This document shows positions 4,819 to 9,101 of a DNA stretch of 9,101 nucleotides, one piece after another. Numbering within the stretch: position 1 is the first letter of the stretch; every line of letters starts with the position of its first letter. Location of the stretch: positions 1-9,101 of the forward strand of contig DATKZS010000207.1 of assembly GCA_035527835.1 (NCBI GenBank), read 5' to 3'. This stretch comes from DATKZS01 sp035527835 [NCBI: bacterium] (GTDB taxonomy: Bacteria; RBG-13-61-14). Position numbers and translations under genes: made by a program. The notes beneath the pieces were generated by a model, which worked only from the letters and a program-made list of their open reading frames with translations, was not told where the DNA came from and searched no databases.

Positions 4819-5294
4819 ACCTGTTTCTTGGCCTCCTCTTTCTGGCGCTGCAGTAGGTCGCGCAACTCTTCCATGAAGTGGTGGGCGTCCTTGAAGGACC
4901 GGTAGACGGAGGCGAAGCGGACGTAGGCCACGTGGTCGAGCTTGAAAAGCTCCTGCATGATGGCCTCGCCGACCACGCTGGAGGGAATTTCCTTGTCGCC
5001 GGACTCCTGGACCTTGAGCTCGATCTTCTCGGCGATCTTTTCCAGGACGGTGATGGAGATGGGGCGCTTCTCGCAGGCCTTTTTCAGGCCGATGATGATC
5101 TTCATGCGGTCGAAGGGCTCGCGCCGGCCGTCCTTCTTGATGACCAGCGGCAGCACCTCCTCGATGCGCTCGTAGGTGGTGAAGCGGCGGCCGCATTCCA
5201 GACACTCGCGGCGGCGGCGGATCACCAGGCCGTCCTTGCTCATGCGCGAGTCAATGACCTTGTTTTCCATATCCTGGCAGAATGGACACTTCAT
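4815..5294 (-). CDS. nrdR: transcriptional repressor NrdR
   Basis: NrdR senses nucleotides through an ATP-cone and represses ribonucleotide reductase genes. The 159-residue protein has the N-terminal zinc ribbon C3-PF-C6 ... C31-LE-C34, the arginine-rich DNA-binding stretch [20 protein letters not shown] (24-43), and the ATP-cone domain from about [16 protein letters not shown] (51-66) to the family signature [13 protein letters not shown] (122-134). It starts at ATG 5294 and overlaps the comEB stop by four bases. A very strong purine-rich ribosome binding site (GGAGG at 5304-5308 within a longer purine run) precedes it. It overlaps ribD by four bases at its other end. No typical NrdR box was noticed in this window, so its targets lie elsewhere. 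The pairing with a dCMP deaminase gene suggests a shared theme of deoxynucleotide balance. Confidence 0.97.
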
Positions 5295-5785
5295 TTTCCC
5301 TCTCCTCCCTCGTAGCGCCGTAACCGGATCGGCGCGTCCTGCAAGAGCTTTTCCGCCAACGGGTCCGGATACCCGTCCTCGAACACGATCTCGTCAATCC
5401 CCGCGTTGATCAGCATCTTGGTGCAGATGGAGCAGGGCAGGTTGGTGCAATAGAGGGTGGCGCCCTTGATCGAGACCCCGTGGTACGCGGCCTGGATGAT
5501 GGCGTTCTGCTCGGCGTGCAGCCCGCGGCAGATCTCGGCGCGCTCGCCGGAGGGGACATTAAGCTCCTGGCGCAGGCAGCCGGTCTCGGCGCAGTGTTTG
5601 AGCCCGGTGGGAGCGCCGTTGTAGCCGGTGGCCAGGACGCGCTTGTCCTTGACCAGGAGGGCGCCCACGGCGCGGCGCAGGCAGGTGGCCCGCTTCCCCA
5701 CCAGCCGGGCGATGGCCATAAAATATTCGTCCCAGCCGGGCCGGCTCTCGGGATCGGGCGGATCGGGGGCAATATGCTCGGACAT
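5291..5785 (-). CDS. comEB: dCMP deaminase (ComEB-like)
   Basis: A zinc-dependent deaminase that converts dCMP to dUMP, feeding dTTP synthesis. Numbered from a GTG at 5794, the 167-residue form shows the catalytic HAE (H93, E95 in GLHAEQNAI) and P-C-x-x-C (C121, C124 in [10 protein letters not shown]) of the family, plus [13 protein letters not shown] (57-69) and the C-terminal region typical of dCMP deaminases rather than RibD or cytidine deaminase. Two starts are possible: ATG 5785, used here, and GTG 5794. The predicted promoter ends only 6 bases before the GTG, so the mRNA would have either a leader of about 9 bases before the ATG or be leaderless at the GTG; neither start has a clear ribosome binding site. 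It is the first gene of the comEB-nrdR-ribD chain. Confidence 0.93.
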
Positions 5786-5800
5786 GTTCTGCACGGATTA

Positions 5801-6981: not shown

Positions 6982-7950
6982 ATGGCGCGGAGAGGAAAGC
7001 AGGGGCGGAAGGGGACCGCGGAGCAGCCGAATTATGAGGTGGCGCTGCGGATGGCGCGGATGGTGAGCGAGATGCCGGCGCACCCGTTCGGGTGGGAGCT
7101 CGGAGACGCGGCGGAGTATCTGCGGGTGAGCGAGCGCACGGTGCGGCGGTACGTGAAGGCGCTGGGGGAGGAGTTCACGGACGATGAGGGCGGCCCCCTC
7201 TACGGGATCGAGAAGAAGGGCGAAGATCTCCGGCTGGTGAAGAAGGGCCGGACGCGCGAGGGCCTGCCCGAGGGCGTGTATCACCTCATCTCCGTGCACC
7301 TGTCCCTCGAATTCTTCCGGATGCTCGGCGAGAACGTGGTGGCGCTGTCGGTGGAGGACGTGTTCGACCGCGCCCGGAAACGCCTCTCCCCCCGCGAGCG
7401 CGACCTCCTCGCCAACCTCGACCGCAAGTTCTTCACCGCCCCCGCCGCCATGAAGGACTACTCGGGCTGCGAGGACGTGCTGGAGGACGTAATCAAGGCC
7501 ATCGTGTTCCAGAACGTGATCAAGATCGTTTACCGGCGCGGCGACGGCGAGGTCCGGGACCATACCCTGGAACCCTATACGCTCATGTATCACAAGGGCG
7601 GCTTCTACCTCATCGCCCGCTCCGCCGGCCGCAAATCACCCGTCTATTTCCTGGTGGAAAACATCCTCTCCCTCCAAGTCACCCGCGACAAGTTCGCCTA
7701 TCCCAAGGACTATCGCCCCGAGCAGATGCTCGACGGCGCCTTCGGTATCTTCTCCGGACCCGCCAAAACCTTCAAGCTCAAATTCTCCCCGGCCCTCGCC
7801 GACTACATCGCCTGCCGCCGCTGGCATAAATCCCAAACCTTCCGCCGCCAAAAAGACGGCTCCCTCCTCATGACCCTCAAAGTGGCGGACACCGAAGAGG
7901 TGAGGAGCTGGATCCGCAGCTTCGGGAGGGCGGTCAAGGTGATGGGATAA
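6982..7950 (+). CDS. HTH-WYL domain transcriptional regulator
   Basis: A 322-residue regulator with a winged helix-turn-helix near the N-terminus (about 35-85; DAAEYLRVSERTVRRYVKAL at 42-61 is the helix-turn-helix) and a WYL domain (about 170-245). WYL landmarks are IKIVYRRGDG (180-189), LEPYTLMYHKGGFYLIARS (196-214, where FYL replaces the eponymous WYL) and DKFAYP (236-241). A WCX-like C-terminal domain follows (about 262-322; FKLKFSP, then EEVRSWIRSFGRAVKVMG). The end lacks the last 10 to 15 residues usual after this point. WYL domains bind nucleotides or nucleic acid and control DNA-damage and phage-defence genes. The start at ATG 6982 is supported by GGGGAGGG and the promoter just upstream. 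Third codon positions change from G-rich in the first ~70 codons to C-rich after ~130. The next gene is a putative nuclease 131 bases downstream on the same strand. Confidence 0.9.
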   Translation: MARRGKQGRKGTAEQPNYEVALRMARMVSEMPAHPFGWELGDAAEYLRVSERTVRRYVKALGEEFTDDEGGPLYGIEKKGEDLRLVKKGRTREGLPEGVYHLISVHLSLEFFRMLGENVVALSVEDVFDRARKRLSPRERDLLANLDRKFFTAPAAMKDYSGCEDVLEDVIKAIVFQNVIKIVYRRGDGEVRDHTLEPYTLMYHKGGFYLIARSAGRKSPVYFLVENILSLQVTRDKFAYPKDYRPEQMLDGAFGIFSGPAKTFKLKFSPALADYIACRRWHKSQTFRRQKDGSLLMTLKVADTEEVRSWIRSFGRAVKVMG

Positions 7951-8042: not shown

Positions 8043-8081
8043 GCGCGGAGTCCGGCGGATCAAACATGCGAGGTTAGGATA

Positions 8082-9101
8082 ATGACCGGGAATGAAAACG
8101 CCAAAACCAAGCGGTATGCAGGGAAAAAGGCGGCTTCGACCGCCCGCGCCAAGCCTTCCCGTCCCCGGGGGAAAATTGTCCAACAGCCTGTTGGACAATT
8201 TAAGGGCGGCGCTCCGGCCATGCCCGAAAATTACGCCAGCGTGCTCCGGGAGCTTAAGCGCCGCATCAGTTCCGCTCAACAGCGGGCGGCGCTTTCCGTC
8301 AACCGCGAGCTGATCGCGCTCTATCTCGACATCGGGCGGAGACTGGCCCATGAATATGAGACTTCCGGCTGGGGGGACAAGGTGATCGAGTGCCTGGCCC
8401 ATGACCTGCGCCGCGCCTTTCCGGAGATGAAGGGCTTTTCCCGCACCAATCTGTTTTACATGAGGCAATGCTATTTCGCATATAAGGACGACCCCCAATT
8501 AGTCCAACAGGCTGTTGGACTAATTCCCTGGGGCCATAACCTGGCCATCCTCGCCAAGCTCAAGGGCCCGGAGGAGCGCGCCTTCTACCTCCGCGAGACC
8601 ATCGCCCACGGCTGGAGCCGCAACGTGCTCATCCATCAGATCGAGTCCGCCCTCCATCAGCGCCAGGGCGGGGCCGTCACCAATTTCCGCCGCGCCCTGC
8701 CTCCGGCCCAGTCCGAGCTGGCCGCCCAGACCATCAAGGATCCATACGTTTTCGATTTCCTGGGCCTTACCCGCGAGGCCCGGGAGCGCGAGCTCCACCA
8801 GGCCCTGGTCGAGAACATCCGCGACATGCTCCTGGAGCTGGGCCGCGGCTTCGCCTTCGTCGGCAGCCAGTTCCCCCTGTCCGTCGCCGGAGAGGACTAT
8901 TATATTGACCTCCTCTTCTACCACCTCCAACTCCGCTGCTACGTCGTCATTGACCTCAAAAGCGGAAAGTTCCTCCCCGAACACTCCGGCAAAATGAACT
9001 TCTACCTCTCCGCCGTGGACGACCTGCTCCGCGGGACCCACGACCAGCCCGCCATCGGACTAATCCTCTGCCGGGACCGAAACAACATCATCGCCGAATA
9101 C
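8082..9101 (+). CDS. DUF1016/YhcG-type PD-(D/E)XK nuclease (3' end beyond window)
   Basis: 340 codons without a stop up to the window edge. After a lysine- and arginine-rich leader (residues 1-46), the DUF1016 N-terminal domain (about 47-200) shows ALSVNRELIALYLDIGRRLA (69-88), GWGDKVIECLAHDLR, FSRTNLFYMRQCYFAY, VGLIPWGHN (145-153) and HGWSRNVLIHQIE. The C-terminal nuclease domain (from about 225) has DPYVFDFLGL, FAFVGSQFPL, the PD-(D/E)XK core D276 ... D291-L-K293 (YYIDLLFYH and VVIDLKSGKF), then KMNFYLSAVDDLLR. The family is often found near restriction and defence genes; its exact biochemical role is not settled. ATG 8082 gives the longest frame, with weak AGGA upstream. ATG 8220 (MPENYASVLRELKRRI) matches the start of the conserved part. 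Two 29-bp palindromes lie in the coding sequence (8173-8201, 8497-8525). Confidence 0.92.
   Translation, partial: MTGNENAKTKRYAGKKAASTARAKPSRPRGKIVQQPVGQFKGGAPAMPENYASVLRELKRRISSAQQRAALSVNRELIALYLDIGRRLAHEYETSGWGDKVIECLAHDLRRAFPEMKGFSRTNLFYMRQCYFAYKDDPQLVQQAVGLIPWGHNLAILAKLKGPEERAFYLRETIAHGWSRNVLIHQIESALHQRQGGAVTNFRRALPPAQSELAAQTIKDPYVFDFLGLTREARERELHQALVENIRDMLLELGRGFAFVGSQFPLSVAGEDYYIDLLFYHLQLRCYVVIDLKSGKFLPEHSGKMNFYLSAVDDLLRGTHDQPAIGLILCRDRNNIIAEY
8173..8201. repeat. 29-bp palindrome, copy 1, inside or ahead of the nuclease gene
   Basis: Arms of 14 bases around a single central C; the core is GTCCAACAGCCTGTTGGAC with AAATT/AATTT flanks. It codes for VQQPVG (33-38) in the poorly conserved leader, or lies 18 bases upstream of the alternative start at 8220. 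In that case it could be an operator or mRNA hairpin. Confidence 0.9.
8497..8525. repeat. 29-bp palindrome, copy 2, inside the nuclease gene
   Basis: Arms of 14 bases around a single central G; the core is GTCCAACAGGCTGTTGGAC with AATTA/TAATT flanks. It codes for VQQAVG (141-146), just before the conserved IPWGHN of the DUF1016 domain. It has the same length and reading frame as copy 1, with centres 324 bases apart. Confidence 0.9.

What the first reader, a model, noticed from the sequence alone, without database searches (positions are those of the whole stretch)
8173..8525. Two near-identical 29-bp palindromes in one nuclease gene, in the same reading frame
The cores GTCCAACAG-C/G-CTGTTGGAC are identical except for the central base, both have exactly 14-bp perfect arms, and the flanking four to five bases differ yet remain self-complementary in each copy. 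Both are read as VQQ(P/A)VG. Copy 2 encodes a conserved part of DUF1016 just before PWGHN; copy 1 sits in the variable leader. The matched flank changes suggest selection for the palindrome itself, not only for the protein. Possibilities are an operator for this or another gene, a mobile palindromic unit derived from the conserved codons, or a recognition or protection site for the encoded nuclease.
Basis: partly seen in the sequence, partly recalled or inferred. Interest (0 to 1): 0.72.

Follow-up and report, generated by a model that had tools for sequence, protein, structure and literature searches.

The report
Nuclease gene carrying its own address
A widespread but uncharacterised bacterial nuclease gene has, written into its own coding sequence at one fixed spot, the palindromic DNA site that its own protein appears to recognise, so gene and protein have changed together across bacteria.

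Summary
The two palindromes are real. They are two copies of a trait of the DUF1016/YhcG family. Of 146 non-redundant full-length DUF1016 genes chosen without regard to palindromes, 143 carry an in-frame 27-bp palindrome with at least 9 of 13 pairs (134 with at least 10). Its form is AATT-N9-N-N9'-AATT, with 95 different N9 arms. It is centred on the first base of a codon, 18-22 codons after a predicted recognition-helix residue in 123 of 143 genes. The modelled N domain resembles the ParB/Noc/Spo0J DNA-binding domain, which reads palindromes. Single residues of the recognition helix and two later helices co-vary with single base pairs of the gene's own palindrome: two pairs exceed all of 638 control bases, three more exceed their 99th percentile. 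The resulting code, trained without them, gives the window's GTCCAACAG 9/9 and E. coli CGCCAGACA 9/9. Exact sites occurred once per genome, in the gene, in 9 of 9 genomes tested. Best reading: each DUF1016 nuclease binds a parS-like site inside its own gene, most likely for autorepression. Self-cutting or allele exclusion is the main rival. Binding is inferred, not assayed.

The parts
8497..8525 (.). Main palindrome at the family-conserved place (27-bp element 8498-8524, centre 8511 = first base of codon 144); inner half-site GTCCAACAG
   Evidence: equivalent element in 143 of 146 DUF1016 genes
8173..8201 (.). Second palindrome with the same half-site in the N-terminal leader (27-bp element 8174-8200, centre 8187), AATT ends intact, in frame
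   Evidence: scores 14.2 bits for the window protein, the same as the main copy
8082..9101 (+). DUF1016/YhcG nuclease gene (start inferred: ATG 8082 with GAGG at 8070-8073; a later in-frame ATG at 8220 is possible; runs off the window end)
   Evidence: Pfam PF17761 and PF06250; PADLOC model PDC-S02, E 2.5e-132
8250..8663 (+). DUF1016_N domain (residues 57-194); predicted ParB/Noc-type DNA-binding fold (residues 73-194)
8442..8483 (+). Predicted recognition helix (residues 121-134); residues 122, 125, 126 co-vary with palindrome pairs 7, 8/9, 5
8541..8543 (+). Codon 154 (Leu); co-varies with palindrome pair 4 (and 3)
8619..8624 (+). Codons 180-181 (Arg-Asn); co-vary with palindrome pairs 3 and 1-2
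8727..9101 (+). YhcG_C PD-(D/E)XK nuclease domain; E235, D276 and K293 invariant in a 55-sequence alignment

Best explanation
The palindrome is the cognate binding site of the protein that the gene encodes. A dimer of DUF1016_N, a ParB/Noc-like helix-turn-helix domain, reads AATT-N9-N-N9'-AATT base by base: the recognition helix (residues 122, 125, 126) reads outer pairs, and residues 154, 180, 181 read pairs near the dyad. The site lies in the gene's own coding sequence, usually 18-22 codons after residue 122, so reader and site are inherited and change together. Shown by computation: presence, fixed place and codon phase, symmetry, co-variation, and near-uniqueness in the genomes tested. Inferred: that the protein binds it (about 0.9), as a dimer. 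Most likely use, given binding: negative autoregulation of a dangerous nuclease by occupying its own gene as a roadblock or operator, with occasional extra copies in the leader or just outside the gene (about 0.5).
For: Family-wide element: 143/146 genes with at least 9 of 13 pairs, 134/146 with at least 10; the centre of the best palindrome is on codon phase 0 in 130 of 137; 123 of 143 centres are 18-22 codons after residue 122. Centre slide in 73 genes: 63 genes with at least 10 pairs at shift 0, 0 at every shift of 1-9 nt. Fold: 11 ParB/Noc/Spo0J rows at Z 8.1-9.9, ten of them with rmsd 2.3-3.2 over 94-101 residues (the eleventh, 6s6h, rmsd 8.3), including DNA complexes 4umk, 6t1f, 6y93; weak Pfam HTH_ParB match, E 0.0096, in 1 of 6 proteins. 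Co-variation: pair7-res122 z 8.9, pair3-180 6.8, pair5-126 5.8, pair1-181 5.0, pair4-154 4.9, pair2-181 4.6, pair9-125 4.5; 638 control bases: 95% 4.17, 99% 4.74, maximum 6.19, and two of the three highest controls (180-143, 122-146) are the same link seen from the protein side. Chemistry: Arg122 with G at pair 7 in 50/54; Arg181 with C and A at pairs 2 and 1 in 74/74 and 61/61; Arg154 with C in 39/40; Lys180 with C in 21/21. In 68 sister pairs, pair7-res122 co-change is 17 both, 7 residue only, 1 base only, 39 neither (P 3.9e-9 uncorrected, rank 1 of 275 columns). Held-out window 9/9 and yhcG 9/9. Own site averages 9.1 bits; the best of 30 random windows of the same gene averages -5.8.
Against: No binding or expression data. 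Pair 6 has no clear reader and pair 8 a weak one (top column 312); pairs 2 and 9 lie below the control 99th percentile. In sister pairs, pair 5 ranks residue 89 first and 126 only 17th, and pair 3 ranks 154 first and 180 ninth. With clusters left out, pair 8 is predicted worse than by majority (12/21 against 16) and pair 9 no better than by the nearest relative (15, 15). Arg is not always with G:C: Arg128 goes with A in 93 of 105. The E. coli L181 allele is mispredicted at 2 of 9 bases, and MG1655's own left arm differs from the prediction at 1 of 9. Own sites do not always beat others: own beat all sampled foreign sites in 48 of 143 genes (mean fraction beaten 0.92), and of 12 genes with a second site-like palindrome 7 score it above the main one. 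An operator about 430 nt inside a gene is unusual and few genes have a promoter-proximal copy. 25 of 120 collection hits of the GTCCAACAG core are not in or near a DUF1016 match, and 4 of 13 genomes picked for such orphan-looking sites have no DUF1016_N match.
Confidence: 0.75

Rival explanations
1. Self-addressed cutting: the palindrome is the nuclease's own target, used against rival copies of the same gene on incoming plasmids, phages or alleles (exclusion), or to provoke recombination at the gene; the own copy must then be protected or cut only under some condition.
For: Conserved PD-(D/E)XK residues; relatives on plasmids (471 records) and in Wolbachia phage WO (3 of 15 phage records); match to a PADLOC candidate-defence model; exact site only in the gene in 9 of 9 genomes; two E. 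coli alleles differ mainly over the segment before and across the palindromes.
Against: An unprotected own site would be cut; no methylase or antitoxin was looked for systematically or shown; paralogues in one genome do not differ more in site than matched pairs between genomes. PMC2672614 (passages) reports that yhcG deletion is synthetic-lethal with dnaB, dnaN and parE hypomorphs, which hints at a housekeeping role.
Confidence: 0.25
2. mRNA hairpin: the palindrome is kept as RNA structure in the transcript (translation control or self-processing).
For: Long arms in a transcribed region; at pair 1, next to the centre, GT/TG exceeds AC/CA (19 against 8).
Against: No G-U preference at pairs 2-9: GT/TG 21 against AC/CA 34 cells (summed); the outer AATT keeps its letters even where they mispair as A-A or T-T; single residues of a ParB-like fold co-vary with single pairs.
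Confidence: 0.04
3. Mobile palindromic element (REP or Rickettsia-palindrome type) that settled in DUF1016 genes.
For: Extra palindromes in some genes: MG1655 has 78 bp more than E. coli alleles L177 and L178; L250 has three in tandem.
Against: Fixed place and codon phase with 95 different arms; 10 of 10 motif copies in DUF1016-bearing genomes are in or at the gene; exact sites single in 9 of 9 genomes; the E. coli 33-mer lies in yhcG/DUF1016 in all 60 listed rows, median 2 places (both strands), highest 4.
Confidence: 0.04
4. Coding coincidence or repair by-product: the peptide, or intrastrand template switching, makes the palindrome without function.
For: Template-switch correction can keep arms matched (recalled, not tested).
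Against: Synonymous shuffles do not give it; correction would not make residues 122, 180 and 181 follow the bases.
Confidence: 0.02

Closest known systems
ParB/Spo0J and Noc with parS / NBS
   Same: Predicted fold of the DNA-reading domain; two-fold palindromic site; recognition-helix residue reads an outer base and a later Arg reads a C:G pair, as ParB R173-G1 and Noc R201-C6:G-6 (PMC7383237, passages). A parS inside the B. subtilis spo0J gene is recalled from memory; no call showed it.
   Different: No ParBc (CTP-binding) domain found by Pfam in the proteins scanned; fused to a PD-(D/E)XK nuclease; site 27 bp with one central base; site letters vary from gene to gene and sit at a fixed place in the gene; not multi-copy in the genomes tested.
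YhcG / COG4804 / DUF1016 PD-(D/E)XK family
   Same: The window gene is a member. PMC1189080 (passages) predicted the nuclease and noted an N-terminal domain lacking confident matches to known structures. PMC2672614 (passages) links E. coli yhcG to DNA replication by synthetic lethality.
   Different: The embedded palindrome, the ParB-like N-domain fold and the co-evolution are not in the passages seen.
Rickettsia palindromic elements (protein-coding palindromes)
   Same: Palindromes inside genes that leave the ORF intact (PMC4316617, passages).
   Different: Those are about 100-150 nt selfish elements at many loci; here one short site in one gene family, tied to the encoded protein.
Intragenic operators (e.g. 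lacO2 in lacZ; recalled)
   Same: Regulatory site inside a coding sequence.
   Different: Here the presumed reader is encoded by the same ORF, and the site is family-wide and co-evolving.

Membership tests
DUF1016/YhcG (PF17761 + PF06250) | Both Pfam domains over cut-off | tested here: met
   138.5 and 181.9 bits, cut-offs 32.8 and 32.5
DUF1016/YhcG (PF17761 + PF06250) | PD-(D/E)XK catalytic residues | tested here: met
   E235, D276, K293 invariant in 55 sequences; position 291 is E or D in 140 of 143 genes
ParB/Noc family | ParB/Noc-type DNA-binding domain | tested here: inconclusive
   Fold match of a predicted model, Z 8.1-9.9, within the range that the tool calls possibly a common helical arrangement (an unrelated helical row is at Z 7.0); Pfam HTH_ParB E 0.0096, below cut-off, in 1 of 6 proteins; no ParB sequence hit in the PDB
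ParB/Noc family | Binds a palindromic site sequence-specifically | tested here: inconclusive
   Statistical residue-base code; no binding assay
ParB/Noc family | N-terminal ParBc (CTP-binding) domain | tested here: not met
   No ParBc match by Pfam in the window protein or in five relatives
Mobile palindromic repeats (REP, RPE) | Dispersed copies at unrelated loci | tested here: not met
Autoregulated DNA-binding proteins | Binding lowers own expression | not testable with these tools
   Needs an expression assay
PADLOC PDC-S02 (candidate defence gene; 'phage defence candidate' is my recalled reading of the name) | Matches PDC-S02 models | tested here: met
   E 2.5e-132; defence function not tested

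The most novel reading that the evidence does not exclude
DUF1016 proteins are self-addressed nucleases: each recognises, through a ParB-like reader, the very gene that encodes it, and uses that address to police copies of itself (exclusion of rival alleles or mobile elements, or self-triggered recombination). Because reader and address usually lie within about 66 bp in one ORF, new specificities arise and spread as a unit, giving a large natural set of reader-site pairs.
Probability: 0.25. Interest if true: 0.95.

Novelty: new variant of a known kind. Interest (0 to 1): 0.88.

Why it matters
It gives a mechanism-level handle on a large uncharacterised family that includes E. coli yhcG and matches a PADLOC defence candidate: for nearly every member examined, the DNA that the protein probably binds can be read off the gene itself. 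A coding segment that is at once protein and the apparent binding site of that protein, kept through 95 different half-sites, is an unusual double constraint. It also offers a natural data set of reader-site pairs for learning a ParB-like recognition code.

Tried and rejected
Mobile element, mRNA hairpin, coding coincidence: see rivals. Dispersed copies: the CAACAGNCTGTTG core in 13 palindrome-selected genomes gave 1-5 sites each, with no visible link to the own gene's type. Domain shuffling at the palindrome found no clear support in N-versus-C identity. Orthogonality of paralogues: 1 of 64 same-genome pairs shares a half-site, but matched between-genome pairs look alike, so it does not discriminate. 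IS-disrupted yhcG in E. coli C, MLI106K2 and QDFD216 was taken as ordinary decay. A protein-based scan of viral contigs found nothing. No sequence relative in the PDB.

Literature. Searches (3 papers; 4; 10; 1; 8; 0) are the ones that bear on DUF1016/YhcG with palindromes, nuclease or ParB; I saw passages of PMC4316617, PMC7967276, PMC1913061, PMC1189080, PMC11341870, PMC2672614, PMC8547009 and PMC6300072 and only the listings of the others. None of these passages describes a palindrome in DUF1016. Searches (244 papers; 1,135; 3) returned lists of which I saw 20, 10 and 3 titles. The library lacks most subscription papers.

Rows set aside: ORFs under 270 aa and duplicates before the 146-gene count; 3 of 146 genes without an element (L223|0, L235|15, L350|1; the first may be a spurious frame); two genes without a residue at the column; unpaired positions were treated as missing. 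The 60 hand-picked stretches came from the top of the list, which was itself cut short. By source the 146 are 98, 47 and 1 from the three phylum draws. In one search at most 3 genes per left-out cluster were scored. The first co-variation run failed with nan and was redone. My notebook entry after miscounted (31 of 35); the listing shows 29 of 34.

Full report
What was reported is there. The two 29-bp palindromes at 8173-8201 and 8497-8525 have 14-bp perfect arms around one base and lie in one frame. The frame is a DUF1016/YhcG gene: DUF1016_N plus the YhcG PD-(D/E)XK nuclease domain, cut by the window end. The window's own genome is not held.

From one gene to the family. Of those 120 sites, 94 lie inside DUF1016 matches, 1 within 52 bp of one, 1 elsewhere in a locus with a match, and 24 in loci without a match. 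To avoid choosing by palindrome I took DUF1016_N hits from evenly drawn genomes: 40 of 200 genomes in the phylum of G001 (a Pseudoalteromonas), 29 of 61 and 99 of 247 (overlapping draws) in that of G002 (a Flavobacteriales MAG), 4 of 80 in that of G010 (an Arthrobacter); genes of the palindrome-chosen G001, G002 and G010 were not used. In the first 73 full-length genes perfect arms of 11 bp or more occur in 28, against a mean of 0.15 in 20 synonymous-codon shuffles, and in 2 of 138 neighbouring ORFs. In an alignment that adds the window and yhcG, 29 of 34 palindromes (arms of 10 bp or more) map to window residue 144 and 3 to residue 146; these 32 and the leader copy are centred on the first base of a codon, though they encode VQQAVGQ, RETLSLE, RDALRHE, LPPLVAE and other peptides; one is a GC-rich outlier. 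At that codon 63 of 73 genes (window and yhcG included) have at least 10 of 13 pairs; moving the centre by 1 to 9 bases gives 0 of 73 each time.

In the enlarged set of 146 non-redundant genes, 143 have an in-phase element (at least 9 of 13 pairs; 134 at least 10) within 150 nt before to 9 nt after the column; 101 are exactly on it, and the others that I looked at have an insertion between the palindrome and the PWGH/SWSHY motif. Measured from residue 122 of the recognition helix instead, 123 of 143 centres are 18-22 codons downstream. There are 121 different 27-mers and 95 different half-sites. By chance about one gene in twenty would reach 9 of 13 in that search window (my estimate), so 134 is the firmer figure. 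Pairs 14-16 pair at about a third, so the element is 27 bp: AATT-N9-N-N9'-AATT. G-U pairs are not favoured at pairs 2-9 (21 against 34 A-C cells), though they are at pair 1 (19 against 8); on balance this speaks against an RNA hairpin.

It is not a dispersed repeat. In the 200 genomes the pattern with any outer triplet was found in 14 genomes (reversed control 0). Ten have DUF1016, and in all ten the motif is in or at that gene (in G170 it is 48 bp beyond the domain match). Of the four without, G001 and G120 have perfect arms, G038 one mismatched pair, G092 two. Exact own-type sites occur once per genome, in the gene, in 5 of 5 GTGCAGCAG genomes and 4 of 4 YGTGACGCR genomes; the other 9 and 8 genomes searched have none; some one- or two-mismatch copies exist elsewhere, most in G143, G203 and G118. 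Within 311 kb around DUF1016 genes 43 of 47 strong 27-bp sites are inside the gene. Extra sites resembling the own site number 30 in 134 loci, 28 inside the ORF and 2 within 40 nt of it, against 75 hits for up to 20 foreign sites per locus.

E. coli. MG1655 yhcG carries three such palindromes (the first two imperfect) and a fourth about 15 bp after the stop, all around CAGACANTGTCTG. Alleles L177 and L178 lack 78 bp holding two of them. Allele L181 differs from MG1655 mainly over alignment columns 241-420, before and across the palindromes; there CGC..GCG has become GTG..CAC in the first palindrome and, after the gene, CTG..CAG has become CTC..GAG, both arms changing together.

An AlphaFold2 model of the window protein (mean pLDDT 81.6, pTM 0.51) matches ParB, Spo0J and Noc DNA-binding domains over residues 73-194 (11 rows, Z 8.1-9.9, including DNA complexes) and PD-(D/E)XK nucleases such as EndoMS over 230-340. 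Plain Foldseek gave no match at E 0.001 or better (best 1.6e-3, a repair endonuclease; Noc 0.1). Z near 10 for a helical domain is suggestive, not proof; a sub-threshold HTH_ParB match points the same way, while a profile search of PDB sequences found no ParB.

The code. In 143 genes (effective number 62) I asked which protein columns co-vary with each palindrome pair beyond background. Outside the palindrome-coded residues the top columns are 122 (pair 7), 180 (pair 3), 126 (pair 5), 181 (pairs 1, 2), 154 (pair 4) and 125 (pair 9; second for pair 8); pair 6 has none that stands out. Of 638 control codon bases elsewhere in the genes the 95th and 99th percentiles are 4.17 and 4.74 and the maximum 6.19; pairs 7 and 3 exceed all, pairs 5, 1 and 4 exceed the 99th percentile, pairs 2 and 9 the 95th, pairs 6 and 8 neither. 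Two of the three highest controls (180-143, 122-146) are the same link read from the protein side. At the reading positions Arg or Lys mostly goes with a G:C pair, but Arg128 goes with A. Among 68 greedy nearest-neighbour sister pairs, 122 and pair 7 co-change 17 times, with 1 base-only and 7 residue-only changes (P 3.9e-9, uncorrected, rank 1 of 275); 154 ranks first for pairs 3 and 4, 125 first for pair 8 and third for 9, 181 second for pairs 1 and 2; but pair 5 ranks residue 89 first, 128 second and 126 seventeenth. With whole clusters left out (50% linkage), residue 122 predicts pair 7 in 20 of 22 cases (majority rule 9, nearest relative 9), 126 pair 5 in 17 of 22 (12, 9), 180 pair 3 in 14 of 19 (5, 10), 154 pair 4 in 15 of 21 (6, 13); pairs 1 and 2 gain little (11/14 against 10 and 9; 16/20 against 14 and 13), pair 9 equals the nearest relative (15/21), pair 8 is not predicted (12 of 21; 16, 15). 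Held-out window: 9 of 9. Held-out yhcG: 9 of 9 against MG1655's right arm and the perfect site of L177-L180 and L183, 8 of 9 against MG1655's left arm. L181 allele: 7 of 9. Relatives with the window's site were in the training set, so its 9/9 is a mild test.

How it most likely works. The protein binds its own gene. Since the nuclease residues are conserved, keeping expression low by self-occupancy is the simplest use; in the window a second full site lies in the leader, its centre 33 bp before an in-frame ATG that could be the true start. The alternative, that the address is for cutting rival copies of the gene, fits its presence on plasmids and phages and its match to a candidate-defence model, but needs a way to spare the own copy. 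A 2009 E. coli survey found yhcG deletion synthetic-lethal with dnaB, dnaN and parE hypomorphs and YhcG associated with HsdMRS and McrABC (PMC2672614, passages), which fits neither use directly. The sequence data do not decide.

Known or not. In the searches that bear on it I saw nothing that links DUF1016 with palindromes of its own or with ParB; the 2005 family paper notes that the N domain had no confident structural match (PMC1189080, passages).

Noticed in passing
window 6982-7950: HTH-WYL-WCX regulator directly upstream of the DUF1016 gene, same strand.
   Followed up: no
window 5291-5794: dCMP/dCTP-deaminase-like protein (ComEB below cut-off; match to antiphage dCTP deaminase models) beside nrdR and ribD.
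   Followed up: no
L250: Three near-identical palindromes about 56 nt apart in one DUF1016 ORF.
   Followed up: no
L085, L066, L263 (Vibrio, Colwellia, Pseudoalteromonas genomes without a DUF1016_N match): GTCCAACAG palindromes outside DUF1016, beside other palindromes with different arms; possible remnants or sites of another protein.
   Followed up: partly
L040 1640-1816: Three different palindromes of this style clustered outside any DUF1016 match, in a genome with 5 DUF1016_N matches.
   Followed up: no
L296, L297, L298 (E. coli C, MLI106K2, QDFD216): yhcG broken beside insertion sequences or transposase genes; in strain C the remaining gene ends inside the third palindrome.
   Followed up: partly
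G476, G504, G512: Genomes of the phylum of G002 with 15, 13 and 11 DUF1016_N matches.
   Followed up: no
E. coli yhcG locus, L181 against MG1655: The palindrome downstream of yhcG carries at pair 7 the base that the other allele's residue 122 would prefer, not its own.
   Followed up: no
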